Of a stretch of 64,000 nucleotides of DNA, positions 1,564 through 60,155 are shown piece after piece. The translations under genes and the position numbers were made by a program. Position 1 is the first letter of the stretch. The number at the start of each line of letters is the position of its first letter. The stretch comes from Pochonia chlamydosporia 170 (Eukaryota; Ascomycota; Sordariomycetes; Hypocreales; Clavicipitaceae): assembly GCF_001653235.2 (NCBI RefSeq), contig NC_035792.1:372001-436000 (forward strand), given 5' to 3'. The notes beneath the pieces were generated by a model. It did no database searches, was not told the DNA's origin, and saw nothing but the letters and a program-made list of their open reading frames with translations.

Positions 1564-4500
1564 ATGCCTACGCTGGGGGACACAAAACCAACAGACGAGA
1601 CAGACTCCAGCACCCTAGCCGCCAGCGAAGACGGTTCTGTTGCCGAGAAGCAGGGGAAATGGGCGGCAGCTCTCCGTGCCTTGAGCGACGAGGATCGTCA
1701 GTTATTTGAGAACCTACATCTAGATGCTCAGAAGCCTGCTTTGAGTGTGCTGCAAGATGTCCTCGCAGCAACTAATGAGAAGAAGGAGGAATGCGTGAAG
1801 AAGAGGATCAAGGTGAAGATCAAGGGCCGAGAGATTGTCATTCGTGATGTGCTCGACAAGATTTCTGCTTGGGTTACAAAGTTCATTGTACGCCGTCCAA
1901 ACATTTTACCTATTTCATGACCAGCTCACATGCTTACAATATGGTATTCTCTGGGTTTAGAGTATAGGTGATGTTATCGTTCAGTACGACCCTGCACATG
2001 CGGCGCTGCCCTGGGCTGCGGTGCGCTTCGTGCTGCAGATATCCGTCAACGATTTCGAAATGTTTGACTTTGCACTATCATCCATAGAACGTTTGGTGAA
2101 CTACATCACCATCTCCAGTATATTTGAAGTACAATATCTCCAGCCCAAGCATCACCAGTAAGTGAATTCCACTACAACGCCAACGCCGAGGGCCAGTTGA
2201 CAAACCTCCAATCCAGCCTCAAGGCTTACCCTCAGCTTTCTGAGGCAGTGGAGAGTCTCTACGCAAATGTTCTAAAGTTCCTTGGATACTTGCTACGCTA
2301 CTTTGGCTCCAGTACCATTGCGCGGCATCTCAAGAGCATAGTCGTATCGAAAAATGACATAGAATCCAAATTTCAGCCCATTGAAGCCGCACGGCTTAGG
2401 GTGGACGAGTTATCACGCTTGATGGCCGCGGAATATACTGAAGAAGAGTTTCAAGTCCTACAAGACAAGCTAGAAGAACTCTACAGACCCATCGCAAGAA
2501 CGGCTGACCACTTGGAAGCCATCAACGACGGCTTAGAACGAGATACTCGCGTGCGCATACTCAAAGCGATTTCTACGATTCCATATCCTGTTCACCACAA
2601 AACCGCAAGAAAAGGCCGCTTGGAAGGATCAGGTGCATGGCTGCTTCGCAGCAAGGCATTTCTGGACTGGAGGTCAGAGAGCATATCTTCAGTACTATGG
2701 CTTCATGGCATACCTGGCTCAGGAAAGACAAAACTGGCTTCACTGGTTGTGGACGAACTTGTGCAAACGAACAAGGTTGCCTACTTTTATTGCATTCGAA
2801 ACCCTGCTGAGCCACACCGAGGTCAATGTGACAAGGTCATGGCAAGCATTGTCCGGCAATTGGCAAGTGTCAAACCTGGTCAGCCTATACTCGACCCCGT
2901 CATCGAGCAATATCGCGAAGCGATAGATGGGTTTTCTGAGTTTGAAGATCAGGCCTGGTCTATTGAAGAGTCTGAAAGGGTGATGCTAGAGCTTCTGGCA
3001 GAATACCCCGCCGTCACCATCATTCTCGATGCATTGGATGAAGTCAATTACGAAGAAAGACAGACGCTTATGGATGTATTGTCAAGATTGATTCAAAAGT
3101 CTCCAAATCTGCTCAAAATCTTCATATCGAGCAGAGATAACTATGATATCGTCTTGCACCTGGCGGAATCGCCTAATATCTACATTGATGCTGATGAGAA
3201 TGCTGAGGATATTGCTTCCTTCATGTAAGTCTCTCTCTCTTTCTTCTTAGTAGCCCTATTGTTCAGTACCGCATAGCTAACCTATGATGAACTAAAGTAA
3301 CGACCGCCTTGACAATGCACGGCTCTTGCATGGAAAACTGCCGATCGAACTCCGTGACACTATTGCTCAAACCCTGAAGACCGGTGCTCGAGGCATGTAG
3401 GTTTGACCCAATCCAAATTGTCCAAGGCGACTGAAACCAAAGCGGAGAACTAACAAATAGTGTAGGTTTCGCTGGGTTGAGCTCCAGATTCAGTCCTTGG
3501 TGCCACTTAAAGTCGCGGCGGACATCCGTGATCGATTGGGAAAACTGCCACCCACTCTTGAAGGTTCTTATTGGGAGCTCTACAACACGATTTTAGAATC
3601 AGGCAAACACGCATCGAAGCTAGCCATATTCACGTTTCAGTGGCTTTTATATGCGCAGAAAGTCATTACAAAAGAGAACTTTGCCACCATCGCATCGGCG
3701 TCTTTTCAGATTGAAGAGCAGGATGGAGAAATAATGGACTCGGGTTCCCCAGAGGCTATCACAACGGGTGAGATCCTTGATGTCTGTGCCAATCTCGTTG
3801 TTCTGCGCAACGAGGTGTTCGTGCTGGCTCACTTATCCGTACGAGAATTCTTGGAAGGTCTTACTACGCGGAATGTTGATACCATGATGGCAACGAGGGG
3901 CAACGCTGCTATTGCTGCTGCGTGCCTTCGACTTTTTTTGTCGAGTGTCGAGTCCGCATACGGCGAGCTTCAACAGCCTGCTGTGGCAGACTCTGCACGA
4001 GACACCAAGCTGGCACAGACGTCAATTCAAGAGGTGACAGACACGCCTACCGAAGCAAATGAGCTATCCCAGTCCGGCCATGCTGCCAAGTCCGCCACAG
4101 CAGAAGCAGATTCGAAGGCAAATGGCAACAATTCCATCGATGATTCCTCTGTACCTGAAGCTGAAGACAACAAAACTGACCCATCTTCCGATACTTCCAA
4201 TAACGATACAATTAGGATTAGGATTCAAGACCAGAAAGTGGAAACTGAGCCGATCCAAGTCAAGATCGCTACTAAACTGCTCGGTGGCCAAAATCCGCAC
4301 GCATTAATCTACTCGTGCGTCCATTGGGTCGAACACGTTGCGGCATCAGCGGAGTTAAGAACCAGGCATCCTCTAGCATCACTACTCACCGGATTTCTCG
4401 TAAATGCCAAGGACTCTGAAAACGTGACGATGTCCTTTCAGGTCTGGCACGCAATGGCAGCTAATTTGAAGGACCGCAGCCAATTTCCATTCCACGGCAA

Positions 4501-5731
4501 GCTCCAAGAAGCGGCAGACCAACCCAGCCCCATCTGGGTGGCCTGCTTATACAATTGGCCGGAGCTGGTTCAACAAATATACCAACTCAATTGGTATGAC
4601 GGCATCAACAAGGAACGATTAATCGAAAGCATCAAAGCCCCGAAGGAGTGGGACATTGTGAGCGCACATGGTTATTATCGAAAGATGACGCCGCTGGTCT
4701 ACGCAGCTGTGTCGGGTGACGTAAAACTGACAACGCTGATTCTGGACAACACTGGAAAAGATATTATATGGGGAGATTTGTCAATAGGAACCCACCCACT
4801 CGTCGGTGCGGCCGCATCTGGCGACAGTGAGATGGTTTCCATGTGGCTCGAGAGAGACCATGATGGGCTCGAAACCGAGGCCGACGCTTTACGTGCAGCA
4901 GCCGGATCGGGGCGCAGGGAGACGATGACTCTTCTACTAGAGCACAATGCTGAGCTGATACTAAGAGGGGGTTATAAAGCGGTCAACTTTGCCTGTGCTA
5001 GAGGTCAAACGGAGGCAGTCGTCATGCTTGTCGAAGCTGGAGCACCAACAGTGCGTGGTGCGAACTTCGTCGCGTCTGCCACGTACTACAGGCATTACGA
5101 CGTGGTCAAGTACTTGCTGGACAAACAGATCGGGCTATCAGGTCGCGCCCAGGCACTGAACCTGGCCGTATCGCACGGCGACGACAAGGGAGCGGCTATT
5201 CTTCGTGAATATGGGGCCAAGAGAGAACCTGCTGCCGTAATTCGAGCCATCAAAGCCGGGACTCGCACATCTGCTATTCGACTGATTGAAGCTGGTTTTG
5301 ATGTCCAACGGCACTATTTCATCGAGCGGGATACGCCGCTTCACGTTGCGGCTCAACGAGGATATACGGACCTGGTGAGCGCATTGATCAAAGCTGGAGC
5401 TTGCGTGAATGCGAAGAATCGATCGGGACAGACGCCGCTTCATGTTGCAGCAGCGCAAAAAGGGTCTTACGATACCTGCAAGCTACTTCTCGATGGGGGA
5501 GCGGATACCTTGATAGAAGATCAGAATGAACACGTGCCTCTGGATATCGCAGAACAGGGTTCTGATGCGGTGGTCGAGAACCTGATCAGAGGCAAGATGG
5601 AAGACTTGTTCAAAGAGCTTCAAGATTGGGATAAGGCTCGCGGGCAGACCATCGCCACAGATGAAGGGTCCAAGGACCGGGAGCTTACTGTGATTGGAAA
5701 AGACGGCCACGAATTACATACGTGCGAGTGA
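1564..5731 (+). CDS. NACHT-ankyrin NLR-type STAND protein
   Basis: Five exons: 1564-1887, 1961-2157, 2217-3224, 3298-3396 and 3466-5731, giving 1297 codons plus stop with every junction in phase. Residues 1 to about 280 form the helical fungal NWD/NACHT N-terminal region (signature [12 protein letters not shown] after intron 1). The NACHT domain has Walker A GIPGSGKT (about 338-345) and Walker B IILDALDE (about 442-449). A winged-helix-like region ends in [11 protein letters not shown] and [10 protein letters not shown]. An acidic Ser/Asp-rich linker follows (about 720-805). At least eight ankyrin repeats span about 950-1260, with canonical TPLHVAA units at the end. Fungal proteins of this build are nucleotide-driven switches, some acting in allorecognition and programmed cell death (family knowledge). 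The N-terminus is not a recognised HET, Goodbye or PNP effector, so its output is unknown. No transmembrane segment or signal peptide was seen. Confidence 0.9.
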
Positions 5732-6393
5732 TATTTCTACCAGCCAGGTTCAACGAGTGAGCGCGGGTGAGAAATAGGTACGGTAGTGGTCCTGCGGGTG
5801 TGTTGGCAGCGGCCTGGGGTGACCGACACTGAGCATCTAAAGCCAATGAAGGAAGAGAACTGGCATACTGGGAGGATACCATCTAGAGCTCCTCTGCTCG
5901 TGAGGTTGTCATATCACTTCGTAAAGATCTGAATCAGAAACAATGTTGGCTCAGTACGCTTTTGATCATTTTCCAGTCGAGCGCAGCCACATTGCTGCGC
6001 GAGTTCAAGTGGTTCACATGGTGGGTGACCGCACTCCGAATTCGCTTGCTTCCAGGAGGATACCTCGAAGCCACACGGCGTAGCGACTCCTAGACAACTC
6101 GCAAGGCCGAGTGTATCTAAGGCCATCTGCTCAAGCTCAAAGCAGCAGGCGAAGCATTTGCTGATGGAGACTTTCCCATTCCATCCAGCTCGGGGAAGGC
6201 TAGGATTGCACGAGATGCTGGTATCGAGAAGGGTTTGGTCATGATTGCTGAGCAGCGCCGTGAGATGGCGAGTGAATGCAATGATCACCTTAGTGAGTCT
6301 GATAGTCAGTGGAAGTAAGAAAGATTGACCTTTCTTATGCTAATACAACCACACGCTGCTCTCACTATCAAGGCCCAGCACTTGTTGATTTTT
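5732..6393. other. Intergenic, 662 nt, convergent ends
   Basis: The NLR (plus) and the DUF7730 gene (minus) converge here. A 124-codon minus-strand frame at 5914-6288 has no recognisable domain or splice structure and is not called. Confidence 0.5.
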
Positions 6394-7670
6394 CTAGTTT
6401 GGCTGAAAACAATGTGACTCCCGCGGTATATAATCATCCACTCCTTGAACAATCCAGTATCCTGCAGCTTGCGTAGAGGGCGTCGCTGTCGCATCCTTTG
6501 GCGAAGGCGGCAGCATGTTGACAGCTCGCCAGAATCTGGGGCTGGGGTAATCGTGAGTTGATTGGTTTGACTGTCGGCTTGAAGCCTCCTGCCATCGACT
6601 GTAGACACACGATGGGAGAGGGAGATATAGATGCTTGAGTCGGCCGTCTGACGAGATTTGTGTCCATCTTTCCCCTGCGTCGTAAATCATCCGCTGCCGC
6701 TTCAGGTCGTTCTTGTCCATTTGTGGCTTCTTGTCAAGAGGTTTCAGATCGCCGCCGTACAGGGAAATATGCACCATCTCGACTTGAGACATGCTGCGCA
6801 GCAACACATCGAAAGGGGAAGCATCCTCCCGGGTCGTATCAGCGACTGTCTTGCCTCGCATGCAGTACCGAATCTCGACGTGTCTGAGAGACGCCCGTCT
6901 CTGCGGCAGGATCAGCTGGGGTAAGTAGCGAAGCATATCTGACCAGTCATCAAACTTGAAGATATTGCTGCTGTAGAGAAGTCCTATGGTCTCAGTATAA
7001 CTTGAACCAACACAATTTTGTTAGTTTTGCTCGGCACCTTATGATCACATGGATGAGATTGGGTGGCCGTGTGTTCAACGCTAGGCACTTACGACTGCCG
7101 ACAGGAGAGGAGCCAGCCCATGACGCCGACGAGGCATTTACCAGGCATAGGCTCTCCAATTTGCCAATATGCACACGACATAGGTTCACCTTGAAGGCAT
7201 CCATCTAAGGATATATGCATGGCAGACCATTTACGGGTGGGACGTTCCCGGTGACAAACGCAGCTTCGCCATTTCCACGTTTTAATTGAAGATGTGTCCC
7301 ATTCGACGTCTGACGATGGCCCACGAGCAGACTGACCGGGCCAGAAGCCGGCGTGGGACTGAAGGTTTCGTTGATAGGCCTGGCGATACTCCAGCACCAA
7401 GTGCAATCCACGGTCTCCAAAGGCGGCTGTGATGATTTTCTCACGAATATTCGCTGGAAGTTCAAAAAAGGAGCCGTTGTTGCGGGTCCAATCACTGTCA
7501 GGACGGAACTGAGCCGTAGGTGTTAAAGGGCGACGGTGCGTGTTGCTAGCGATGTTGCTCAGGCACAGCTCCTTGAGCGAGTTTTGTCGCTCATTGTGGG
7601 CGTTTTCCTTTCCATTGTGCTGGCGTTGAGCTGCTTTGCGGTGGATCCAGTCAGACAACTTGTTGGGCAT
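6394..7670 (-). CDS. DUF7730 / F-box-like fungal protein
   Basis: Two exons, 7670-7093 and 7000-6394, with a 92-nt intron and a GTAAGT donor; 394 residues. A longer upstream frame exists, but the ATG at 7670 is the natural start for the family. The N-terminal motif FFELPANIREKII resembles the F-box-like LPxEIR start of DUF7730 proteins. It is followed by Cys-rich WRSCVCHRE and GVMGWLLSCRQ, which runs through the intron into GLLYSSNIF. That is the usual core of these large fungal families (known pattern). They are suspected adaptors or structural proteins; no catalytic residues are visible and no role can be assigned. The C-terminal 90 residues are hydrophilic and less conserved-looking. The gene converges with the upstream NLR. 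Confidence 0.75.
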
Positions 7671-9260
7671 GCCTGGTGATTTGCAAATATATGTGAGAGT
7701 GGACTTAGGAATTTGTACAAGTAAAATAAGACGAAACGATGGGCTTGGGCTGTTGTGTCGTCCACGCGGCGATGGCGTTGAGTGCGAGTTGAGGAAATGA
7801 CGGTCTGATGTCCTCCGTAACCAAGCGCCTATGATTGAGTCGAGGTCGGGGCGGCGCCCACTGATATAGCCCGTGGTGGCCTGCATGTGTAGTATTGAGC
7901 TGGTTTGCTCCACCTGAAGCGCGACCCCAGCCTGCCTATGGCCCGCGGGGTGCCTTTTACGGGACATCGGACGCTATGCTCGATCTTATCCTCTAGAATT
8001 TAACTGATCAATGTCTGGTCTGGCGTGGTGCACTGCCGGAGAAAGTAATTTCCCGACATTGCCTCACCCCTTCCTTCCCAAAATCCGTCCTCGATACTCT
8101 AATCCTGTCGCTGCACAGATGCCATACGTTTTCATTCTTTCCATTTGTTGGTTGAGGCTTTGCTGAAGACAATAGGTGACTCAGACTACAATGTTCGCAC
8201 CCGAAGCTTTCAGATTATTTACCCATTGGCGCGGGACATCTGGCTACGTAACGGTTTACAGTTACTTGTCTGTTGTCCCACATGATGGATCAACAATTCC
8301 ACCAGGGTGCATGAATGGCAACGGCGATAGAGTAGTTGAGTCAGTCAACCACGTAATTTACACAATCCTGGCTTGGTAATGTTATCAGTTTAGAGCAGGT
8401 CGTCGTTGGCTGAAGAGCCCGGCTGAATAGAAGATAGCAGAGGAGTCTACTACACGGAGCAAGTTTGTAGACAAACTTGTCCCTTACTGGGCTAGACATA
8501 CTAGGTGGTTTGGTGGGCGTCTGATAGCCTGGTGCTAGATGACACTGCGACTTGCATAAGCTCTCGTCAACATCCATACCTTGCGGAGCATTAGTCCCGA
8601 CCAGTCCTTCTAGAAGGTTGGTCCCCTCAGGTTGCTAGTCCACATGGCGGTACATAATAACGGCTAGCACAGCATTGAGAGCAGCCGCAAACACCTTAAC
8701 CCCGGGGCACGCTGTTACCCATCATGTAGCTCTCCTTGTTTGTTACCTTGATATGGTTGTCTATTGATACCTGCCGCCCTGTGTGCTACGGTATATCCAG
8801 ACGGATAATCACAGGCGGTAAACTGTGACATGTACAGCTTGTGTCAGTGACTCAGCGGTAGGACTTGACATTTCCGAGACGGTGACACACAAAACTCAGA
8901 GCAAACGCTGGCCCAATTCTCTGCAAGTAGCCTCAGCAGAAATGCTTGTCAAACAGAGCACAAATTCCCGATCTCGTGAGTCCTCACCACTGCTCTTGTG
9001 GATATCGGGATGATGCATCACCTGATGATGCGCAAACGGTGACTGATTCAATTCTATTGGATTTTTGATTGCTTGACGAGGATTCTATGCGGTATATATG
9101 TTTATTCCCTGACACGGGAAATGAGCCGTTGAGCTTCTGAGGCCATGATCCAGCCAACAGACGACTCTATTTCACCCACCTGAGTCCGGTGGCTTTTTCT
9201 GGTTGGCTATTCTTTGGGGCTCCTAATTTCCTTATTTCTTTATCAAATCATCTGGAAATC
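7671..9260. other. Intergenic, 1.6 kb
   Basis: This is the divergent space between the DUF7730 gene and the trimodular gene. Small frames occur on both strands, but none has a start, splice site and domain that support a gene. Confidence 0.45.
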
Positions 9261-11871
9261 ATGGTTAATCATATCGAATCTGCCTCCCCGTTGGCAGAGT
9301 TGACCAACCAAGTACCCGTGGCACCGGAAAGCAACGTAGTAAAGAGTCCAGTTGCCCGCGCCCACCGTCCCGCCGCGATCGTCAAACCAAGAAGCATTTC
9401 ACAGGTCCAGACATGCGTCCGATGGGCGTTGAAGCACAATGTCGGCTTGACCATCCTGGGTGGCGGCCACAGCGGCCACTGCCTCCAGCCCAACGTTGTG
9501 GCAATCGACATGAGCGCCTTCAATCAAGTATACATTGTTACTGATGAGGAAAGTAAACGAGCATCCGGAAATGATATGGGGTTGATCGTGGCGGGCGGAG
9601 GTTGTAAGGCCGGGGATATTATCCGGCAAAGCTTGCAGGCGGGCATGACAGTCCCCCTCGGCAGTCGACCTAGTGTAGGAGCTGGACTCTGGTTACAGGG
9701 CGGTATCGGCCATCTGGCTAGACTACATGGGCTGTCGTGCGATGCTATCGTAGGCGCTGTGATGGTAAGTGTCAGATCGGGCGAGGTGTTCTTGGTTGGT
9801 CATGTACCGAGTCAACACCGTCCAAGACTTGGTGTACGGCCAGAAAATGATGGCGATTTACTATGGGCGTTGAAAGGTGCGGGGACGGACTTTGGTTTTG
9901 TTGTGAGCGTTACTTTCAAGGCCTACGCCGCTCCGTCGTACTCGGTTCGAAACTGGGTTATTCCGTTTGCAGATGATGCCCAAGCGAGTCTCAAGCTTAG
10001 AGCTTTCGATGAGCTTGTTACTACTCAGCTTCCCCAGAGCTGTTCAGCAGAGGCGCACATGTACTTCGAGGATGACCAGCTACGATTCGGTGTGCATATA
10101 TGTGAGTCGTCAACTACTGAAACTACACCCAGTCATGTCACAGGCATGTCGGCAGTTACGGAACTGGAACCGGACGAGGATGTCAAAGGCCTAGACGGTG
10201 TTGAGGTTTTTGAGCACGAAATGTGCGTGGTTAGACTCCGTGGCGGTTACGGCAGCAAAACCTCATCATTCAAGCGATGCATCTTCCTAAAGTACGTTGG
10301 ATCACCACATATCTCCACTCATCTTATCACGGCTCTAAAGACCCGTCCGACTCCGATGTGTTATCTTCAGCTTCGGCATGTTGGAGGAGCAGTCAAGGCT
10401 GTCTCAGCCGGCGCTACTGCGTTTGGCTGCCGAGATTGGAATTTTGCTTTCGTGATAAGCGGTGTCTGGCCTCGTCATCAAGACAACACTGAGACAGCTC
10501 GATCTGCGGTGCGGTGGGTTTACGATGTCACGGAGAAGTTGCTACCATTCTGCTCCGGCGTTTACGGAGCCGATCTCGGGCCGGATCCGAGAGACACGGC
10601 GCTAGCGGCAAAGGCTTTTGGACCGAACGGCCCGCGTCTTGCCCGGCTTAAGCGAAGCTGGGATCCGCACAATGTACTGGCCTTTGCTTGTCCACTGCCA
10701 CCAGTCTCGGCACCAAAGCTCATCATTCTTGTTACCGGGGAAAGTTGTGCTGGGAAGGACTACTGTGCCGACGTCTGGGTCTCCGTGTTTAACTCTCTCG
10801 CAACCGGACGTCTCGCGGCTCGTTCCATTGGCATTGGTGATGGAACCAAGCGGGCGTATGCGGCACCGGTGCTGACTTGGATCGCTTGATTTCGGACCGC
10901 CATTACAAGGAACGGCACCGGTTTGCTCTGACGACCTTTTTCCAGAATCAGGTGCAGCAGCGACCCCAGCTACCTGAGGAGAATTTCCTCAAGGCAGTGG
11001 ACTGTGGTCCAGACGTAGACGTGCTGCTGATTACTGGGGTGAGAGATGAATGGGCCACTGCAACGTTTGCGCACTTAGTGCCAGAGAGTAGACTGCTCGA
11101 GATTCGTGTCCAAGCTAGCACACAGACACGGAGCTTGCGTCGAGGCTGTCAAGGTTCCGATGATGTTGTCGACGATACACCAAGCGAAAGCGACTACACC
11201 TCCTGTCCCACTCTCATTTTCAACGACTCAGCCGACTCCGAGGCCGTTGAAGGATTCGCTAAAACCCATCTAACTCAGTACTTTCACCACGACTTGCATC
11301 GGCTAGCTGCTATGGTCACCCCCATCGCCAACTTTCCAAGTCCCGGCATCACGTTCCAGCACGTGTTCGACATCTCACAGCAACCAGGAGGGTTAGCCTT
11401 ATGTACGTCCTTGCTACAAAGTCATTTCGTCGGTGACTGGCGCAAGATTGATAATGTGGTATGTTGCGAGGCGGGTGGCTTTATTTTTGCCGCTCCACCG
11501 GCCGCGCGATTGGGAAGCCTTTGGCCCTGGTTCGTAATGCTGGTAAACTTCCACCGCCAATCGTGTCAGCGAGAAAATCTACGTCACATATTTCGTCTTT
11601 GCTCGCTGATGGTGCCGGAGACAAAAGATTTGAGATGGAATGGAATGTGGTACCCATGGGTGCGTCGGTCGTCATTGTGGACGATGTGCTTGCCTCGGGA
11701 CGGACGCTCTGTGCTGTGCTGAGGTTGTTGGGCGAGGCTGGGATCGGTGCTGATCTTGTGAGTGTTATGGTTGTGGCGGAGTTTCCTGCTCATCGGGGAA
11801 GAGATCTGTTGCATTCGTGTGGGTTTGGTAAAGTTCGTGTTCAGAGTTTGTTGGTGTTTGGTGGTGTTTAG
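9261..11871 (+). pseudogene. Berberine-bridge oxidase / PMVK-like kinase / APRT-like fusion, frame broken twice
   Basis: Three protein modules follow one another on one strand. Residues 1 to about 490 (9261 to about 10720) are an FAD-linked oxidase. It has a PP-loop region with GGGHSGH, where His is the usual 8-alpha FAD attachment site, and a C-terminal BBE segment (RSWDPHNVLAF). The Cys expected for a second FAD link is Gly (GGIGHLAR). About 10730-11280 is a P-loop kinase with GESCAGKD, then LISDRHYKERHRF, closely resembling human-type phosphomevalonate kinase. About 11310-11871 resembles adenine phosphoribosyltransferase (FPSPGITF and the PRPP loop VVIVDDVLASGRT). The frame drops by one base near 10861-10866 and again near 11514-11521. 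No intron of suitable phase restores it without removing conserved residues. Adding two bases would make exactly 871 codons including stop. It is either a recent pseudogene or an assembly with two base losses. Confidence 0.8.
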
Positions 11872-24338: not shown

Positions 24339-25154
24339 TCATTCTTTGCTCACCCTTGACCTTCGAATTTTGCCTGGGAAGAAGCCGTCACTGGCATGGC
24401 TAAGCCACACCTCTTCTCCCTCAGCTAACTCGGACACATCGACTGCTTCTTCAACACATAGCCCTTTACTTAGAGCATAGCGCCTCGTTGAACTGGCGTT
24501 ACATCCTGTACTCAGTGGCGGAGTAGCCAGATAACCATTTTCAGTACCATTCCTCCCTCGCCAGACATACACAGTCGTGATGCTTCCCTCCGTCACTTGG
24601 CCTTCCTCGTTCCAGAGCAGCGTCTCCCTGGGTTCCTCGTAAGACACAAGCCCGGCCCTGTCTCTAGCCTCATTATACATGCCTCTAACGGAGGTCTTGT
24701 GACCCGTAAACCTTGATCTTGGCGTTGCAACGGTGTCGACCAGGACATCCCAAATGGGGAGATTGCGAGCCTCGCGTTCACCCTGAAGAAATTGGACGAG
24801 GTCGTCCGCAGTCCGTCCACTGGGTAACTTGACAATTTCGTGCGATAACGGTTTCAACTGTGTTGTCATGGTAGATATTTTGCAGTCGGGGTGTATTTTG
24901 ACATTCACACGCCATGACTGTGTGCGATCTGTAACGGCGTCATCCACGGCAGTTTTGAGGAGTTGAATACCAGCTTCGTCGTCTTGTAGTAGCTGTTGAA
25001 CATGGACAAGCTGGAATTCTGCAGCGGCGTCGCGAAGACGGAGCAAGTGAAACGGTAAGAGGTAGTATGGGAGGTTTACATCGTCCTCTGTGAGATTTGG
25101 CTCAAAGCGAATAGAAGTAAATATGAAAAAGTCGGATGGGAGATTTGCACTCAT
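24339..25154 (-). CDS. Aminotransferase class IV, aminodeoxychorismate-lyase-like
   Basis: A single-exon 271-residue protein. The ATG at 25154 is chosen (MSANLPSDFFIFTSIRF), because the longer frame adds 16 residues without family support. The layout matches fold-type IV PLP enzymes of the PabC/ABZ2 kind: N-terminal FTSIRFEP, a central RFTGHKTSVRGMYNEAR block with the presumptive PLP-lysine, and the glycine/threonine loop EEGQVTEGSITTVYV that contacts the cofactor phosphate. It then has LSTGCNASSTRRYAL and VSELAEGEEVWLSHA. Such enzymes release pyruvate from 4-amino-4-deoxychorismate to make p-aminobenzoate for folate. Some fungal paralogues act on other amino acids, so the exact substrate is inferred. 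No targeting peptide is seen. Confidence 0.8.
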   Translation of the reverse strand: MSANLPSDFFIFTSIRFEPNLTEDDVNLPYYLLPFHLLRLRDAAAEFQLVHVQQLLQDDEAGIQLLKTAVDDAVTDRTQSWRVNVKIHPDCKISTMTTQLKPLSHEIVKLPSGRTADDLVQFLQGEREARNLPIWDVLVDTVATPRSRFTGHKTSVRGMYNEARDRAGLVSYEEPRETLLWNEEGQVTEGSITTVYVWRGRNGTENGYLATPPLSTGCNASSTRRYALSKGLCVEEAVDVSELAEGEEVWLSHASDGFFPGKIRRSRVSKE

Positions 25155-25558
25155 GGTATAGCCTTTTTGTCCTGTGGTATACTGAGATATAATACGTTTC
25201 AATTTGGATATTCTCTGACAAGAAAATGGGTTTACTATTGAGGGAAGCGTGTTTTATAGCCGGTTTGGTCCTTGGCGGGATTGGGGAGCTCCGCACTGAA
25301 TTATTAATCACACCACTTGTTTGCACCGTAATGAGTGTCGTATTCTATCTATATATACGACTAGTTCTTGGTTTTCCACCTGGTCAACATTTAATGGTTC
25401 AGCCACCAAACCGAATAAATCTCGTCAAGCCCTCCTGCACTGCTTTGACCTATTAAATACCAGACATGTATGTAACAGTCGCTCAATCGGGTCGTGCCTG
25501 CCCTAACCCTGAGAACATCTATTGGCACCGTGCTCCCATACCGCCCTCTTGCCGAAAA
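25155..25558. other. Intergenic, about 400 nt, divergent promoters
   Basis: Separates the minus-strand aminotransferase gene from the plus-strand conserved protein. Nothing specific is seen. Confidence 0.4.
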
Positions 25559-26415
25559 ATGTCAAATCAGGTGATGCATTTGACCAGACCTCGTTCCATT
25601 TTCTCTTCTCCCCATCGATTTCGAATCCTTCCTTTCAATGTTGGGGTCAGCAGCCAATCTGGCCGAACTTGACCTTCGCTACCGCAACAATTGCAAGCAA
25701 ATATCCGCCGTATCGTAGCTTGCCGAGAGACCAAACCTACAGCATTACCATTATAACCACGACGTCGCAACCAGCCCGAGTTCTTGCCATCTCTTTGCGC
25801 AAACAACCATTCTTTGACGAGATGTACGCCACTCTTCTGGCGGCCCTCAGGTCAAAAGCTGAGCTTCAGCGGGCTGAAAACTCCACGTCAGCAATTACGC
25901 TTTTGTCACAGCGACCAGAGCCTTTGGCCGTACTAATTACAGACGAAGCCTTGACTCTCGGGGCTAGTATTTCTGTTTGGGAATCGGTTCTCGCATATGT
26001 CCGCGGCGGAGGCACAGCAATCGTCATGGGCCACTTCCCCTCCTTCGCACGGCTGAACAACGTAGAGCCATTTTTCTCTCGAGCAGGTCTGCCGTGGGGA
26101 GCTGGATCTTACCACAGGACGACGTTGGCATTGAACCAATCTGCGGTTGGTGTGGCCAACGCCCAGAAGCTACCACAAAAGTACAGCCAGAAGGCCGTGT
26201 TTGTGAAGAACGTCGCACCAGAGGATATGTGGTACAATACCGACAATGACTCGGTGGTTGAGTCTTTGGTCTTTGCTCCAACAAGCGCAAAAGTGGTTGG
26301 AGTAACTGCCGTGGCATTGGCCAATATCGGCGAAGGAAAGCTGGGCTATGTCGGTGACGTAAATGCAGAGGAAGGGTCGAATGCGGTCGTCCTTGCCATG
26401 TGCGGACTCCTGTAA
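25559..26415 (+). CDS. Conserved fungal protein of unknown function (5' exon tentative)
   Basis: The body of the protein is clear from PARVLAISLRKQPFFDE (about 25755) to the stop at 26413-26415. It contains VLITDEAL, the block YVRGGGTAIVMGHFPSF, AGLPWGAGSYHRTT, and a C-terminal LGYVGDVNAEEGSNAVVLAMCGL. The fold resembles a flavodoxin or glutamine-amidotransferase-like alpha/beta sheet, but no catalytic Cys-His pair is obvious. The family looks conserved in ascomycetes and has no role I can name. No in-frame ATG precedes this body. A plausible start is the ATG at 25559 (four codons), spliced from 25570 to 25651 across an 80-nt intron with a pyrimidine-rich 3' part, giving 258 residues. The 3' three quarters are certain and the start is not. 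Confidence 0.7.
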
Positions 26416-26749
26416 TCAGGCACTGGGCCAAGTGTAATCTGTCAATATGAGAAGCAGCCGGAAGTGGGATACATGTGTTGACGCTCTCGCCGCAGTAATT
26501 CAACCAGTATGGACCTTGACCTTTGCTATACCACACGGGGTGCTCTCTTTCATAGGCATCCTTTCAGACTTTCAGGAGTTTGTAGACATCGGAGCCGAAG
26601 AGGAGCCGTTTACCCCATCGCTTGAACTAAGAACCTTATCTCGGAATGGTCGAATCGCAATTTCACACTCATCCAACTCCCGTCATTCCAGAAACTTGCC
26701 CAGCAACATCAACTCCAAAGTGAAAGGAGAGAGCCATCAAGATATCAAA

Positions 26750-27187
26750 ATGTCAGCTCCAATGCAGGATCCAGGCGAGAAGTCTCTCTCAAAGTTGCTT
26801 GCGACCCTGACCACAATTCTCCACCCCACGACATTTGTCTTCGCGACGCTCAAAGACGAAGCACACGCGCCGCCAATGTCGGAGGTCCAACTCTTCTTTC
26901 GCGAATCAGAAGGTATTACAGTCATCACAAGCCTCTATTGCGCCAAGCTACATAATCTGGAGTACTTCTTCCCGTGTAAGATGATTACTCTCAATGTTAC
27001 TTCGAGTTTGGAGGCGGTGGGGTTCATGGCGGTTATTGCGACGAGGTTAGCGACCAAGGAAATGGGTGTTAATCCAGTTAGTGGATTCTATCATGACCAT
27101 TTGTTTGTTCCGCTTGGGAGGGAACACGAGGCGATTGAGACGCTGGCCGAGTTGGCGGAGGAGAAGAAGAGGGAAGCTGGCTTGTAG
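26750..27187 (+). CDS. ACT-domain protein (DUF2241/ACT_3 type)
   Basis: A 145-residue single-exon protein starting MSAPMQDPGEKSL. The frame is open upstream to 26447, but the ATG at 26750 sits after an A-rich context (ATCAAA) and matches the family start. The first half (LHPTTFVFATLKDE, then SEVQLFFRESEGITVITSLYCA) and the second half (CKMITLNVTSSLEAVGFMAVIATRLA, GVNPVSGFYHDHLFVP) are the two ACT-like units found in this family in bacteria and fungi. Such domains usually bind amino acids and regulate enzymes, but stand-alone members have no established substrate. It follows the conserved protein in the same direction with a 334-nt gap. The gap contains an open frame, probably 5' UTR. Confidence 0.85.
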   Translation: MSAPMQDPGEKSLSKLLATLTTILHPTTFVFATLKDEAHAPPMSEVQLFFRESEGITVITSLYCAKLHNLEYFFPCKMITLNVTSSLEAVGFMAVIATRLATKEMGVNPVSGFYHDHLFVPLGREHEAIETLAELAEEKKREAGL

Positions 27188-53439: not shown

Positions 53440-55034
53440 ATGTCCCAAACAGCTACCATCACGCAGGAAGCTCACGCATCTCCCAGCGATGGCATTGAGT
53501 TGACTCGTTTCCCGTCAACTGCCTCACATGGGCGCAGCATAGGCTCCCAAGCCAAAGATAGTGTCCGAACTCCTGCCGAAGCAGAAATTGGACCATCTGA
53601 CGGCGATGGTGAGCCGCCCGCGGATGCGCAAAGTCAAGTCGAGCGGTGGAACTATCCAAGATCGAATGTATTCAAGTTGGGATTTGCATTCTTGTCGTTT
53701 GTTATTGCAGGAATGAATGATGGCGCAGTTGGCGTACGTATTTATCCTTCAAGTGCCAAAACTTCATACTAATTACTCCACAGGCATTAATCCCATATGT
53801 ACGTTTACTTACCACCCCCTTATCAGATTAATCTCTCATGATATACAGCTCGAAAAATACTACGACCTAAACTACACCGTCATATCACTCATCTTCCTCA
53901 CCCCCTTCGCAGGGTACTCCCTCGCCGCATTCACCAACGCCCGCATCCACGTCGCTTTCGGACGCCGCGGCGTGGCCATCATGGCTCCGTTATGCCACAT
54001 CATCACGTACGCGGTTCTTGCGTCGCATCCGCCGTATCCTGCGCTCGTGGTTGCGAACGCCATCAGTGGTTTTGGCAACGGACTTACTGATGCGTGTTTC
54101 TGCGCGTGGGTCGGCGCGATGGATAAGGCGAATGCGATTCAGGGCTTTTTGCATTCGTGTTATTCCCTGGGTGCGTTGTTTGCGCCTCTTATTGCGACGA
54201 GTATGGTTGTTACGGCTGGATTGCCATGGTATAACTACTATTACGTCATGGTGAGTTATATTTCTCTGGATCTAGGGGTATGAAGTTGGCTAACTATGGT
54301 AGATTGGGATATCGTTCCTGGAGTTGGTTGGTTTGACGGCTGCGTTCTGGGATAAACCTGGTTCAGTGTACAGAGCTGAGCATACGAATGATAGTGAAAG
54401 CTCTGGCGCAGGGACGAGGGAGGCGATTAAATCCAAGGTTACGTGGTTATGCGCCGCCTTTTTCTTCACATACATGGGCGTGGAAGGTAACATCCCCCTG
54501 TAACCCCAACCAACAAAATAACTAACGAGTGCAGTCGGTCTCGGCGGATGGGTAGTCACATTCATGCTCAAAGTGCGTCACGCAACGCCCTACGCCTCAG
54601 GAATATCCGGCTCCGGCTTCTGGGCAGGCATGACACTCGGCCGCGCGGCACTCGGATTCGTAACAGAGCGCTATGGCGAGCGCATCTGTCTGACCATCTA
54701 TCTGGCAATTTGTCTGGGACTAGAACTGCTGTTCTGGCTGGTGCCGCAGTTTGTGGTCTCAGCTGTGGCGGTTGCTTTTCTGGGCTTCTTCCTTGGGCCG
54801 ATGTTTCCGGGGGCGGTTATGGTTACGGCGAAGTTGCTGCCGAAGAGGATTCATGTGAGTGCTATTGGGTTTGCGATGGCGCTGGGCGGGACGGGGGGAA
54901 CGGTGTTTCCGTTTATTATTGGGGCGGTGGCGAGTAGTGCGGGTGTGAAGGTGTTGCAGCCGATTGTGTTGGCGTTGATTGTGGTTGTGACGGTGGTGTG
55001 GTTGAGTTTTCCGAGGATTCGGAAGAGGGAGTAG
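53440..55034 (+). CDS. MFS permease (fucose-permease/BSC6-like) with microexon
   Basis: Five exons, 53440-53733, 53784-53798, 53849-54250, 54303-54486 and 54535-55034, giving 464 residues. Exon 2 is only 15 nt (ALIPY), flanked by GT-AG introns of 50 nt each, and is in phase. The N-terminal 80 residues are Ser/Glu-rich and cytosolic. Twelve transmembrane helices follow in the FucP-type pattern: AFLSFVIAGMNDGAVG then ALIPYLEKYYDLNYTV, with ISGFGNGLTDA, the central charged loop, GLGGWVVTFML, GSGFWAGMTLGR and GFFLGPMFPGAVMVTAKLLP. Relatives carry sugars or other small neutral compounds by proton symport; the substrate is not known. It follows the CFEM receptor by 483 nt on the same strand. Confidence 0.9.
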
Positions 55035-57450
55035 GGGAGGGAAGAAAGGAGGGTTATGGGATGGATTGGTAGAGATAATTAGAGGAAAATGGGAAATACT
55101 ATGGGAGTTTGGCAGGCTAGATAACAATATTTGTTTGCAGGTAGTCTCATGCAATATTGGACGGCCATCCCTTGATTGACGTCACAACTTGGCTTTGAGT
55201 GGCATTTGACGAAGTAATCTGATCATTTCAATATCTCAACGTTTGCTTATAACGACTTACATGATACGTTCTGGAGATGGTGAAATTGGGTGACCAACGT
55301 TTGTCTTTGCTCGTGCGACAGGCTAGATGATCAGAAGTGTTTGAAGGACAACTACAACAAAAGCATTGTGACTGGGCAATGTTTTACGCGGCAGAAGGAC
55401 AAGCATGACACTGTTTCTAGGCTGCGAAGGGACCGACAATGGGTAACTTGTCCAAGCTCCGAATCTGGAGCGACTCGTTGCAGCTCTTCAATTAGCACAT
55501 TTTATTGACGTCGGTCTTGCCACACAGGTGCTGCTGTTATACACTGAGTTAGAATCATGGTGTTCACTTCTCATGGGTTTGGTCCTGTCTGCATGTTTAT
55601 TGTAGCAACTGGCTGCTGCAAATATTGACCTCTTGGCAACACAAGACTTTTCGCAAGCACTGGTCATGTATTTACGAGTTTAGGGAAACGATTAGTTTAT
55701 TTTGTTGACCTAGATGTTAATATGAGCCCATCAGTAAGTATCTAGACAACTCTGCCCGCAATGGGAGGCCAGGCTTCCGCAGAATGATGCGACCTGGGAC
55801 TGCTTTAATGCAAGCGCCTGGCAAGGACGTCCAGATAAATATGATGCGGCTTCACCTCATCACAGCAGCTTCAAATTCCGGGCGCAGGTCAGTTATGTAA
55901 GGAATGGAACGATTGAGTTGGCTTGGAAACTTGGGACGTCTGGGCCTGGTGTATGTTGTTAGTTACCTCCAGGCGAAACGATGAAAACACCACGGCTCAA
56001 CATGACACAACCGAATCTTCTGCTAATTGACCATCATAGCGTTTTGTAAAGAAAATGAAACTGTCGTTGTTTGCAACTTCAATCGTTCCCTCGTAATATG
56101 CCGGAATCAAGGACTCCGCGCGCTTAACTACGCCTGGAATCGGAATTGAGGGCGACGAAACTATTTCGCTGGGGCTGAGAGACTAAAGTCATGACTCCAG
56201 TGACACAAGAACTATTGGAACTAAACACTCTTATTGCACCTCTCAATCGACGAAGTTCCCCAAGGTTGCGAGCTTCATGGAACTGCTCGCCCAGAAACTG
56301 GGTCCTCACCGCTAAAATGGTCAGAGGAGAAGTTGTCAACTCGCTTTTGGGCGAATCAACGAGTATTTATGCATTGTGCTCCCTTGTAGGGCTTCCCCAA
56401 GCAACAGGGGGTTCCAACTTGTCGGGCACACCAGTATTGCAAAAACCTCCTGTTCATATGATAAAGTCCGACGTGGTATGTGAGGAGTACCTGGTGAGAA
56501 TAGCTTCGCCCCGCGTCTTCCAGTGTTGATTCTGTCGTGTCTCCGACGCTATCGATTGACAGCTAGAAACTATCGAGTGGCACGTGGCCTTGTGTCAGTT
56601 TATTCCCGGTCCAATTTGAGTTGTTCCACTCCGTCACGGAGTTGGCGACAACCTGGTATCAATCTGCGGGTCTAAACCCGATTATTTTCTTGGCCGGGCT
56701 CAACTCTTATTATAAATGCAATCACCGAGGCCATGCTTTTGTTTGTTCATCAGCCACGCATTGTTAGCATGAACGAACAATGAGGTGGGCCATTTTCTGC
56801 TAAACGCAAATCATCGGCGCAGCTGAAAACTGCTGGACGAACTAGACGGGGGTTCAGGGAAACGCCACAACGGAGTCCATTTTTGGTAATTTAGACTTAC
56901 AACAGGCAATGCCTAGACCAAAAAGGACAAGCGGTGGCTTGAATATTGCTGCGAGTGAGCATTCCAGGCTGTCAAAGCCCCAGAAACGGGGTTCTCTAGG
57001 CCTTTGTGGCAAACGGTAGTGCCGTCATGGTGCACCGTTTTCGATCAAATGAGGTTCTTGCTACTTACTCGTTGACGCTGATTTGATTTACCCCTGGATG
57101 GCGCGAACAGGGTATGACGGCGGGCTAGACCGACCAGGAACCATTTCGAACCACATTGATCGCGTGTTGTGTGAGGAAACGCATGACAACACATCATGGA
57201 AATAACCAGGGCGGAGGAGACCTACCGGGGAGAGACCCGCAGTTTAGTCTAGAGTTATCGTCAGCTCCGGTTCATGGTGTTGTGGTTTTGTATGTGAGAC
57301 ATGAGAGAAAACGCTGATTGCTTCTCCTGATGTAAATACTATATAGCGGCGCAGAAGATCACCTTGCAGCTTGTTCTTGAGCGGCCTGGTTCCTTCTTGT
57401 CTGTTGGCTACGATCTTTACGGTTCCGGTCACAGGGTAGAATCGATCACG
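55035..57450. other. Intergenic, 2.4 kb
   Basis: No gene is supported. The last 110 nt are the core promoter of the surface-protein gene. Confidence 0.5.
57340..57346 (+). promoter_or_regulatory. TATA box of the Thr-rich surface protein gene
   Basis: TATATAG, about 105 nt before the ATG at 57451. Confidence 0.5.
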
Positions 57451-59649
57451 ATGCGGGCGGCAACTCTGTTATTGTCCTGGGCAGTCGGCACGGCTTTTGC
57501 CTTGCCGTCACCACAGCCACACCAGGATTACGATAACCATCATGATCATCATGATCACCATGGGGGTTCGTGTAACGCACCTGATGATGCCATTGTGAAG
57601 CTGTTGAAGGGTCTACCAGGAGCCCAGCCCTTTTGCTCTGCCCTGCTTCACATCCCCTGCGATGTTGTGACCAAGACAAAGACCTTCACTCCCGCGCCTA
57701 CCACTGTCAAGACCACCGCTACGGTTACCAAGAACCCAGAGACACGATGCTCGAAGACGGAGACGCTCACAACAAGGGTCACAAACTCAATTACCAAGAC
57801 TACCACCGACTTTGTCACCAGCTCCCCCGAGGCGGTGACAGTTACGAACCATCGAACTGTAACAGTTACCGACGTACAAACTCAGGACGTGACGGATTCC
57901 ACCTACCTCACCGTCACTCGATACGTTACTGGATACATCACAAACACTGTCTTCAATACCGTTACAGATGTTGCTGCTCAGACATCTACCGACGTGGCCA
58001 CTCAGATTGTAACCGTAACCAAGTATGCTACTTCGTTCGTTACTGCCACCGTGTCGGACATGGTGACCAACTTCATCACCAACACGCACACCAACTACAT
58101 TACAGACAGCGTCACAAATGTCCACACGGCAACTGTCACTCTCTCCTTTACCAACACGGTCACAGCTACCACAACCAACGAGGTTGACCTTACTACCACG
58201 CAGACTGTGGGAGCTACGGCCACGGAAACTACTACCGTTACCGACCACGAGACTGGTTACGCGAGCGTCACGACCACGCATGACATCACGGCGACGGACT
58301 ACATAACTGCCACTTATACCACTGTACTGACGGATGTTTCTACCGTTGTCACCACTGCCATTGTGACAATTGTTCCACCACAGAAGCGTGATCTCTACAG
58401 AGGGCAGCCCATCTATACACCCAGACCATTGGCAACTATTGCTGCTAAGAAGTTGTCGAGTGCGTGCTCCAAATTGCACATTACTCCATCTACAAAGACC
58501 ATCACCGCTACCCGGACAGCCAAGCGGCCGACTTTTACAAAGACCGTCACCACGTATGTTCCTGGCAGAAAGGGTAGTTACTATGTCACCAAGACTATAA
58601 CCGACTACGTCACTACCGTTACCGGCGTTGTCTCAACCATTGTCGCCCCAACCGCTACAACTACTCTCGACGCAGTTGACTCTATTACCCAAGTTGACAC
58701 TGCCACGAGACGACTGCCGCTGACTTACACCGTCACGGATGATGAGACCACCACAATCAATGACGTTGTAACAAACTATGTCACCAGAGTTATTACATCT
58801 GTTGTTGTTGTCGATGTGACTCAGACAGCCACTCAAACTGAGGACCAGACAACTACAATGACTGAACTCAACACCGTTTCTGTCACAAACACTCAAACAG
58901 AAGATGTCACTATCTCACCAACCGTGACTGTCACAGACGATGTCACCACCACGGCTACAGACTTGACCACAGATACCGCAACTCAAGTCAAGACCGTTGA
59001 TGTAACCAACGTTGCCACCGCTCTCGTCACCTCCTCTACCACTGTCACTATCACCCAGCCAGCAACCATCTACACAACCATCACAAGCACCATTGACGCC
59101 ACCAATACCAAGCACATCACCAAGACCGTCGACGTGACCATCACCAAGACTGTGTCAACGACAACAACTACCACCGTCACCGCCACAACTACTCAAGCCG
59201 CCCCAACGTGCAACGTCAACGTGATCAAGAACGGCGGCTTCGACTCCACTTCCCTCCCTCCCTGGACATGGTCTCCTGGTCCAAACGGGAGGTACTCCTA
59301 CGTCCAAGGCCTAAACAGCTATGCTGCCTTAAATATTTACACCAACACTCCTGGGCAGGGCGTGGCATCCATCTACCAGGCATTCACTACCACTCCCGGA
59401 AAAATATACACCGTTACATTCGATTACTACGCGCTCGGCGGCAACGGAGCCTCGGCTATCACCTGCAGCGTTAATAACTCGATTACAAGCGGTGTTACCT
59501 TCCCCTTAGCTGCGTCAAGGGGCTATTGGCGGACTGGTGTATTTGCTTTCCCTGCTACGTCGTCGACTACCACGATTACGTGCAGGTTGACTACCGCCGT
59601 TTCTGCAAGTGTGTATCTGGATAATGTTGTGGCCAAGACGCCGTGTTAG
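57451..59649 (+). CDS. Thr/Val-rich secreted cell-surface (adhesin-like) protein
   Basis: A single exon of 732 residues. The ATG at 57451 is chosen because it opens a signal peptide (MRAATLLLSWAVGTAFA); the 29 codons before it lack ATG. A His/Asp-rich spacer (HDHHDHHGG) follows. Two long Thr/Val/Asp blocks in short TVTxT-like steps lie on either side of a central cysteine-bearing segment. Each block is headed by a CSxxLHI motif (Cys62 and Cys339). Between them is a dibasic KR site at 312-313, suited to Kex2-type cleavage. The C-terminal module (about 587-732; NVIKNGGFDS to YLDNVVAK) resembles a carbohydrate-binding jelly-roll of the CBM4/9 type. No GPI signal is seen. The dense Ser/Thr stretches suggest heavy O-mannosylation. 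A wall-bound or shed adhesin is the likely role (inference). Confidence 0.8.
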   Translation: MRAATLLLSWAVGTAFALPSPQPHQDYDNHHDHHDHHGGSCNAPDDAIVKLLKGLPGAQPFCSALLHIPCDVVTKTKTFTPAPTTVKTTATVTKNPETRCSKTETLTTRVTNSITKTTTDFVTSSPEAVTVTNHRTVTVTDVQTQDVTDSTYLTVTRYVTGYITNTVFNTVTDVAAQTSTDVATQIVTVTKYATSFVTATVSDMVTNFITNTHTNYITDSVTNVHTATVTLSFTNTVTATTTNEVDLTTTQTVGATATETTTVTDHETGYASVTTTHDITATDYITATYTTVLTDVSTVVTTAIVTIVPPQKRDLYRGQPIYTPRPLATIAAKKLSSACSKLHITPSTKTITATRTAKRPTFTKTVTTYVPGRKGSYYVTKTITDYVTTVTGVVSTIVAPTATTTLDAVDSITQVDTATRRLPLTYTVTDDETTTINDVVTNYVTRVITSVVVVDVTQTATQTEDQTTTMTELNTVSVTNTQTEDVTISPTVTVTDDVTTTATDLTTDTATQVKTVDVTNVATALVTSSTTVTITQPATIYTTITSTIDATNTKHITKTVDVTITKTVSTTTTTTVTATTTQAAPTCNVNVIKNGGFDSTSLPPWTWSPGPNGRYSYVQGLNSYAALNIYTNTPGQGVASIYQAFTTTPGKIYTVTFDYYALGGNGASAITCSVNNSITSGVTFPLAASRGYWRTGVFAFPATSSTTTITCRLTTAVSASVYLDNVVAKTPC

Positions 59650-60155
59650 ATGTGGGGTTTGATAGCTCTTTAAGATTCTGTGTATATATTTGGGATATTT
59701 ATTATGTGAAGATATGTTAAGAGACATGTATGTTTATGTGCTCTAATTGCATATTTCCTTTTGATGAGTTGTGTGCGTTGGGGACACCATGGAATTGGTG
59801 ATGCTGTAACTGTGTCTTGCCATTGGGAAATGTGTAGAGTGCAGCGTCAAAAGAGCTTGTAGGTTGCGAGGGACTTCATTTTGGAACGGTTTCTTTGTAT
59901 CGAGGCCGGTTTTCGGATGTTAACTTCGTGTTAGGCACTACCCAATATATCATTACGGATCTCATCCTTTTGGTTTTAGGGGCGAGTGGAAATGTCTGTT
60001 GTAACTTATTGATAGCAAGTTCGATGGGTTAGATACATTGATGAAGTACGATGATGTTTGTTCAGCTTGATAGAAGTTTCGTTTCGCAATTACCAGAGAG
60101 TTGTTAGTGAGCATTGAATCGGCGCGAATGGAGATTGGACTCGAAGCATCGATTT
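59650..60155. other. Intergenic, 506 nt
   Basis: 3' flanks of the surface-protein gene and of the minus-strand small gene. Nothing else is recognised. Confidence 0.5.

What the first reader, a model, noticed from the sequence alone, without database searches (positions are those of the whole stretch)
9261..11871. Oxidase-kinase-phosphoribosyltransferase fusion gene
One strand encodes, in order, a berberine-bridge-type FAD oxidase, a P-loop kinase resembling human-type phosphomevalonate kinase, and an adenine-phosphoribosyltransferase-like domain with a clear PRPP loop. Fusing an oxidase to a nucleotide-salvage pair suggests a path that oxidises a small base or ring and attaches it to ribose phosphate. 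It could belong to nucleoside-analogue or cytokinin-like chemistry, but no neighbour supports either. The modules are seen in the sequence; the joint reaction is inference.
Basis: partly seen in the sequence, partly recalled or inferred. Interest (0 to 1): 0.75.

Follow-up and report, generated by a model that had tools for sequence, protein, structure and literature searches.

The report
Decayed copy of four-enzyme fungal fusion
This stretch is the damaged remainder of a large fungal gene that elsewhere joins four enzymes in one protein (a methyl-adder, an oxidase, a kinase and a ribose-phosphate-adder); the fusion is real and recurs in related fungi, but the only copy found in this fungus has lost its first part and its reading frame is broken twice.

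Summary
The window is Pochonia chlamydosporia 170. Homologues show that the fusion is no artefact: of 317 fetched proteins 221 hold oxidase and kinase in one chain, 188 oxidase, kinase and phosphoribosyltransferase. It occurs across Pezizomycotina, lichens included. The one copy found in Pochonia lacks the methyltransferase, changes frame twice and has lost a family-typical oxidase motif, so I read it as a relic. The deposited 708-residue model bridges the frame changes with two 'introns' that lie on conserved coding sequence. Two family members from different classes carry GTP cyclohydrolase I at their N-terminus, which points to a pterin- or GTP-derived heterocycle. My mechanism (methylate and oxidise a small N-heterocycle, attach ribose 5-phosphate from PRPP) is inference from the domains. 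Kinase and PRT fail the curated tests for true PMVK and APRT. My searches of the held open-access library brought up no description of the family.

The parts
9192..9260 (+). Weak trace of the methyltransferase-oxidase linker, upstream of the ATG; the methyltransferase domain itself was not found
   Evidence: tblastn (liberal settings) of 12 full-length members: alignments of 11 begin at 9192-9222, that of the twelfth at 9255; the alignment shows the trace with a short insertion in the window. Methyltransferase profile in 3000-9400: best E 1.2. The genome search with P0144 gives no match to its residues 1-277.
9261..10868 (+). First frame: FAD oxidase (FAD_binding_4 at about 9369-9791, flavin-His motif from 9459, BBE at about 10608-10685) running into the kinase P-loop (from about 10731)
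   Evidence: Pfam; motif; open frame 9141-10889; 57% identical to P0144 residues 278-822; 21 of 177 family-conserved positions differ.
10859..11512 (+). Second frame: rest of the PMVK-like kinase and about the first third of the phosphoribosyltransferase
   Evidence: 59% identical to P0144 residues 821-1040; P-mevalo_kinase 34.1 bits, Pribosyltran 18.4 bits, the latter below its cut-off.
11467..11871 (+). Third frame: rest of the phosphoribosyltransferase; PRPP loop at 11668-11709; stop at 11869-11871
   Evidence: 59% identical to P0144 residues 1027-1158; Pribosyltran 38.6 bits; loop and stop checked.
10869..10945 (+). First intron of the deposited gene model (P0001); lies on conserved kinase coding sequence in the second frame
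   Evidence: The deposited protein is reproduced exactly with introns 10869-10945 and 11459-11627; median identity 72% to 66 members in the second frame against 4% in each of the two other frames.
11459..11627 (+). Second intron of the deposited gene model; lies on conserved phosphoribosyltransferase coding sequence; the model stops before the PRPP loop
   Evidence: second-frame part 56% and third-frame part 50% median identity to 64 members, against 7% in the wrong frames for the third-frame part; downstream of the deposited stop the third frame is 67.5% identical to 60 members.

Best explanation
The locus is a relic of a conserved Pezizomycotina gene whose complete product is one chain of about 1160 residues with four domains: SAM-dependent methyltransferase, FAD oxidase of the EncM/berberine-bridge type with a His motif for covalent flavin, PMVK-like P-loop kinase, and APRT-fold phosphoribosyltransferase. 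Most likely the complete protein methylates and oxidises a small nitrogen heterocycle, probably derived from GTP or a pterin, and attaches ribose 5-phosphate from PRPP, the kinase phosphorylating an intermediate or the product. In Pochonia the methyltransferase is gone and the reading frame is broken twice, so at most an oxidase with a kinase stub can be made by plain translation. Shown by tool results: the domains, the recurrence, the missing methyltransferase and the frame changes. Inferred: the reaction, the substrate, the order of steps, and that the copy is dead.
Against: Each of the three frames is open and still 57-59% identical to P0144, so the decay is recent or parts remain under selection. 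The conserved positions were defined on the members, which favours them; even so two members are more deviant in the oxidase (P0104, P0110) and four in the kinase (P0085, P0110, P0088, P0104). GCH linkage rests on 2 gene models, whose GCH domains are only 59% identical to each other. Methyltransferase kinship to histamine N-methyltransferase is weak (E 0.022). No reads or transcripts were seen and no substrate is demonstrated.
Confidence: 0.7

Rival explanations
1. The deposited gene model is right: two introns (77 and 169 bases) are spliced and a 708-residue protein is made, with an oxidase, a kinase lacking a stretch of conserved residues, and a cut-short phosphoribosyltransferase without PRPP loop.
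For: The model reproduces exactly with introns that begin GT and end AG; the second donor GTATGT is a typical fungal one (recalled).
Against: Both 'introns' are conserved coding sequence in the shifted frames: 72% median identity for the first (66 members), 56% and 50% for the two parts of the second (64 members), against 4-7% in wrong frames where tested. The product would lack the DRxYKExHR stretch and the PRPP loop.
Confidence: 0.12
2. The oxidase part (9261 to the stop at 10889) is still a working enzyme; only the downstream parts are dead.
For: Open frame over 542 codons with the flavin-His motif kept; 59% median identity to 60 members.
Against: 21 of 177 conserved positions changed, third highest of 61 rows, among them the MHxGH motif just before the conserved FKRC. 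No obvious partner gene among the 20 window ORFs scanned.
Confidence: 0.2
3. Sequencing or assembly errors cause the frame changes; the real gene is an intact three-domain fusion.
For: The frames are otherwise clean and well conserved.
Against: High-coverage Illumina-based assembly (passages of PMC5773674); two independent errors in one gene would be needed; by reading the sequence neither site lies in a long homopolymer; the missing methyltransferase is not an error of this kind.
Confidence: 0.07
4. The family works on purine-type bases (salvage or inactivation of a cytokinin- or adenine-like base) and not on pterins; the GCH neighbours are chance.
For: The nearest solved phosphoribosyltransferases are APRTs; FAD oxidases and APRT both inactivate cytokinins in plants (recalled).
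Against: APRT equivalog cut-offs not reached (101.1 of 125, 86.4 of 185.85 bits in P0144); APRT flexible-loop EYG in 0 of 221 (motif recalled); the oxidase resembles 6-hydroxynicotine oxidase and EncM. GCH is the foreign domain in 2 of the 3 fetched proteins whose listed Pfam domains include one.
Confidence: 0.3

Closest known systems
EncM / 6-hydroxy-D-nicotine oxidase / berberine-bridge-enzyme-like FAD oxidases
   Different: The second, cysteinyl flavin link of true BBEs is not visible (recalled motif in 3 of 204); fused to three further enzymes
Animal phosphomevalonate kinase (PF04275, TIGR01223)
   Same: P-loop and the first 87 of 211 profile positions align with solved phosphomevalonate kinases 7xnd (E 9.1e-5) and 3ch4 (E 0.0088); Pfam above cut-off in the window and seven members
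   Different: NCBI equivalog far below its cut-off of 188.15 bits (22.9-34.3 in four members; 15.9 in the window); Pochonia has an ERG8-type kinase elsewhere
Adenine phosphoribosyltransferase
   Different: No EYG flexible loop (0 of 221); (E/D)xRG(F/V) in 2 of 221, a CEAGG-like motif in 212 of 221 instead (motifs recalled); equivalog cut-offs not reached
Histamine N-methyltransferase and other class I SAM methyltransferases
   Same: SAM motif I in 132 of 132; the best solved-structure hits are histamine N-methyltransferase
   Different: The match is weak (E 0.022); not found in this window's copy
GTP cyclohydrolase I (PF01227)
   Same: Stands N-terminal of the four domains in P0132 and P0199
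   Different: Not found in the other 122 four-domain proteins; the only GCH found in Pochonia lies on another contig

Membership tests
Intact member of the four-domain fungal family | All four domains (MT, FAD, KIN, PRT) | tested here: not met
   No methyltransferase found upstream or elsewhere in the genome
Intact member of the four-domain fungal family | One translatable reading frame | tested here: not met
   Three frames without room for introns; deposited introns lie on conserved coding sequence
Berberine-bridge-like FAD oxidase | FAD_binding_4 plus BBE domains above cut-off | tested here: met
   Window: 60.3 and 22.6 bits, cut-offs 26.4 and 20.6. In the seven members scanned FAD_binding_4 passes, but BBE scores only 12.3-20.6, at or below its cut-off
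Berberine-bridge-like FAD oxidase | Second flavin link through cysteine | tested here: not met
   Motif recalled; found in 3 of 204 proteins and not in the window protein
Animal-type phosphomevalonate kinase | Pfam P-mevalo_kinase above cut-off | tested here: met
   34.1 of 33.8 bits in the window's second frame; 70-80 bits in seven members
Animal-type phosphomevalonate kinase | TIGR01223 equivalog cut-off | tested here: not met
   22.9-34.3 of 188.15 bits in four members; 15.9 in the window
Animal-type phosphomevalonate kinase | Phosphorylates phosphomevalonate | not testable with these tools
   Needs an assay; an ERG8-type kinase is present in the genome as one 481-residue open frame, matched in three pieces, each below the family cut-off
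Adenine phosphoribosyltransferase | APRT fold and PRPP loop | tested here: met
Adenine phosphoribosyltransferase | apt equivalog cut-offs | tested here: not met
   86.4 of 185.85 bits (TIGR01090) and 101.1 of 125 (NF002636) in P0144; P0222 and P0110 also below
Adenine phosphoribosyltransferase | Flexible catalytic loop with EYG | tested here: not met
   0 of 221 (motif recalled)
Histamine-N-methyltransferase-like methyltransferase (family, not this copy) | Significant sequence match to HNMT | tested here: inconclusive
   Best E 0.022 with a six-sequence profile
Pterin pathway | Genetic linkage to GTP cyclohydrolase I | tested here: inconclusive
   2 of 124 four-domain proteins; I had no fungal contigs of relatives to look for neighbours

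The most novel reading that the evidence does not exclude
The complete four-domain protein is a one-chain synthase of asperopterin-type compounds, that is N-methylated, oxidised, ribosylated pterins: GTP cyclohydrolase I supplies the pterin, the HNMT-like domain methylates a ring nitrogen, the EncM-like domain oxidises the ring, and the APRT-fold domain adds phosphoribose. A gene for the asperopterins, blue-fluorescent pteridine compounds reported from Aspergillus oryzae in 1969-1972 (passages of PMC6208954; methyl and ribose details recalled), would then be at hand, and Pochonia would be a natural loss case. An Aspergillus flavus protein of the family exists (P0222).
Probability: 0.1. Interest if true: 0.75.

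Novelty: new variant of a known kind. Interest (0 to 1): 0.42.

Why it matters
A chain of about 1160 residues joining four catalytic domains, one of them of a kinase family best known from animals, is conserved across several classes of filamentous fungi, and my searches of the held library brought up no description of it. Its domain set makes a concrete, testable prediction (a methylated, oxidised, ribosylated heterocycle, perhaps a pterin). The Pochonia copy shows how automatic annotation can turn a broken gene into a spliced one, and gives a natural loss case.

Tried and rejected
Looked for the methyltransferase upstream with the family profile and tblastn and in the whole genome: none found. 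Looked for relatives of kinase-PRT in the prokaryote and viral collections: 48 and 11 pattern matches, none confirmed. The methyltransferase profile found three weak bacterial relatives (L022-L024); I listed the ORFs of L022 only and drew nothing from it. Asked whether the 5' break comes from a repeat: 8000-9200 matched only itself. The tree of 88 oxidase domains (quick method, LG+G4 without mixture, 39 of 85 inner branches open, class labels recalled, two short rows P0103 and P0120 left out) clusters partly by class and puts the Pochonia copy on a lone branch; it neither shows nor excludes horizontal transfer. The structure lists are filled by one domain (oxidase, APRT), so methyltransferase and kinase folds were not tested by structure; that no kinase or methyltransferase chain is listed there says nothing. 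Cytokinin: one paper search, one unrelated paper listed. Of the other paper searches, searches listed only papers that I judged unrelated by title and abstract start and did not open, searches listed none, and (gene tags, one of them a guessed Pochonia tag) found no paper.

Limits of counts: searches list 120 of 351 and 120 of 1016 hits, all 83; the length windows of those searches bias the architectures. The window's own P0001 is among the 317 proteins and among the 204. Domain profiles were built from 12 full-length sequences, GCH from one. In one search the third-frame PRT count (9 of 55) includes five positions before the frame change, where that frame is not the coding one; four remain, and the second-frame PRT part has 2 of 24. 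In one search the residue-to-position map is approximate after any insertion.

Full report
What was checked. The window lies in a 44,215,803-base genome of 49 contigs. The oxidase frame is 100% identical, over 99% of its length, to P0001, a deposited protein of Pochonia chlamydosporia 170, whose published assembly is 49 scaffolds and 44.2 Mb (passages of PMC5773674); the species is in Clavicipitaceae, Hypocreales. The oxidase and the kinase P-loop are in one open frame (9141-10889), so that junction is present in the DNA itself.

The frame is broken twice. A complete relative, P0144, matches the genome at 9255-10868 (its residues 278-822), 10859-11512 (821-1040) and 11467-11865 (1027-1158) (converted to window coordinates). 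The pieces abut in the protein, so no intron can lie between them. The deposited model is reproduced exactly with introns at 10869-10945 and 11459-11627. Those stretches, read in the shifted frames, are conserved coding sequence: median identity 72% to 66 members for the first, 56% and 50% to 64 members for the two parts of the second, against 4-7% in wrong frames where tested, and the third frame beyond the deposited stop is 67.5% identical to 60 members. The deposited introns are therefore most likely annotation devices. The assembly rests on about 210x Illumina and 32x PacBio reads, which makes two errors in one gene unlikely, though I did not see reads.

The family. The three protein searches gave 317 proteins, P0001 included. 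With profiles for each segment, 122 have MT-FAD-KIN-PRT, 2 GCH-MT-FAD-KIN-PRT, 64 FAD-KIN-PRT, 63 KIN-PRT, 27 MT-FAD, 26 MT-FAD-KIN, 7 FAD-KIN, 4 PRT, 1 FAD and 1 KIN. Per search, oxidase and kinase share one chain in 92 of 120, 114 of 114 new proteins and 15 of 83 (where only short proteins could be found). The median length of the 122 is 1159 residues and 102 of them are 1050-1250 long. Some models are split at the oxidase-kinase border: Endocarpon P0026 (MT-FAD) and P0253 (KIN-PRT) carry neighbouring tags, GJ744_006071 and _006070. The species names that I read in the listings are, by recalled taxonomy, Pezizomycotina; I looked up three taxa, and many proteins carry no species name. A tree of 88 oxidase domains is partly ordered by class (23 label changes against 47 shuffled; class labels recalled) and puts the Pochonia copy alone on a branch of 0.47.

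What is lost here. No methyltransferase is found in 3000-9400 (best E 1.2) or in the genome; a weak trace of the linker before the ATG remains. Kinase and PRT were found in one place only. In the oxidase 21 of 177 positions conserved in at least 90% of members are changed, against a member median of 2.3%; only P0104 and P0110 of 60 members are more deviant. In the kinase 8 of 58 are changed, and four members are more deviant. The positions were defined on the members, which favours them. The MHxGH motif, in 174 of 204 proteins, is missing. In the PRT few conserved positions are changed once those before the frame change are discounted. The decay thus looks recent or uneven, and the oxidase alone might still be made.

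Mechanism (inferred). The set methyltransferase, oxidase, kinase and PRPP transferase is that of an enzyme that modifies a small heterocycle and puts phosphoribose on it. GTP cyclohydrolase I sits in front in Aspergillus glaucus P0132 and Rutstroemia P0199, which belong to different classes. The joints differ between the two, so they may be two neighbouring genes merged by gene prediction; either way the genes would lie side by side. Among the Pfam lists of the 317 proteins the only other foreign domain that I saw is an aminotransferase in P0302. The two GCH domains are 59% identical to each other, while the four-domain parts are 76% identical. Fungi are reported to make pteridine glycosides: asperopterins of Aspergillus oryzae, asperopterin A being an isoxanthopterin glycoside (passages and reference titles in PMC6208954; PMC9781283 passages; the N-methyl and ribose details are recalled). 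This fits but is no evidence that the gene makes them.

Novelty. Ten paper searches, of which one search was on the genome and on asperopterin, brought up no description of this fusion in their listings; subscription journals are mostly not held. The finding is a relic of an apparently uncharacterised fusion family: each fold is known, the combination is, as far as I could search, undescribed.

Noticed in passing
window 2128-5728 (+): NACHT/NPHP3_N domain with DUF7708 (2128-3225), followed by an ankyrin-repeat ORF (3461-5728): an NLR-like fungal gene pair or one gene with an intron.
   Followed up: partly
window 54001-60000: Local GC skew of opposite sign (+0.194 at 54001-56000, -0.165 at 58001-60000) around a 772-codon ORF (57331-59646) without a Pfam match.
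   Followed up: no
P0132 and P0199 (homologues, not in the window): GTP cyclohydrolase I N-terminal of the four domains in two fungi of different classes; the joints differ, so probably neighbouring genes merged by gene prediction.
   Followed up: partly
L022 4914-5867: A proteobacterial methyltransferase-like ORF (317 aa) distantly like the family's N-terminal domain (26% identity).
   Followed up: no
window 24342-27184: Aminotransferase class IV ORF (24342-25253, -) next to an ORF without a Pfam match (25513-26412, +) and an ACT-domain ORF (26438-27184, +).
   Followed up: no
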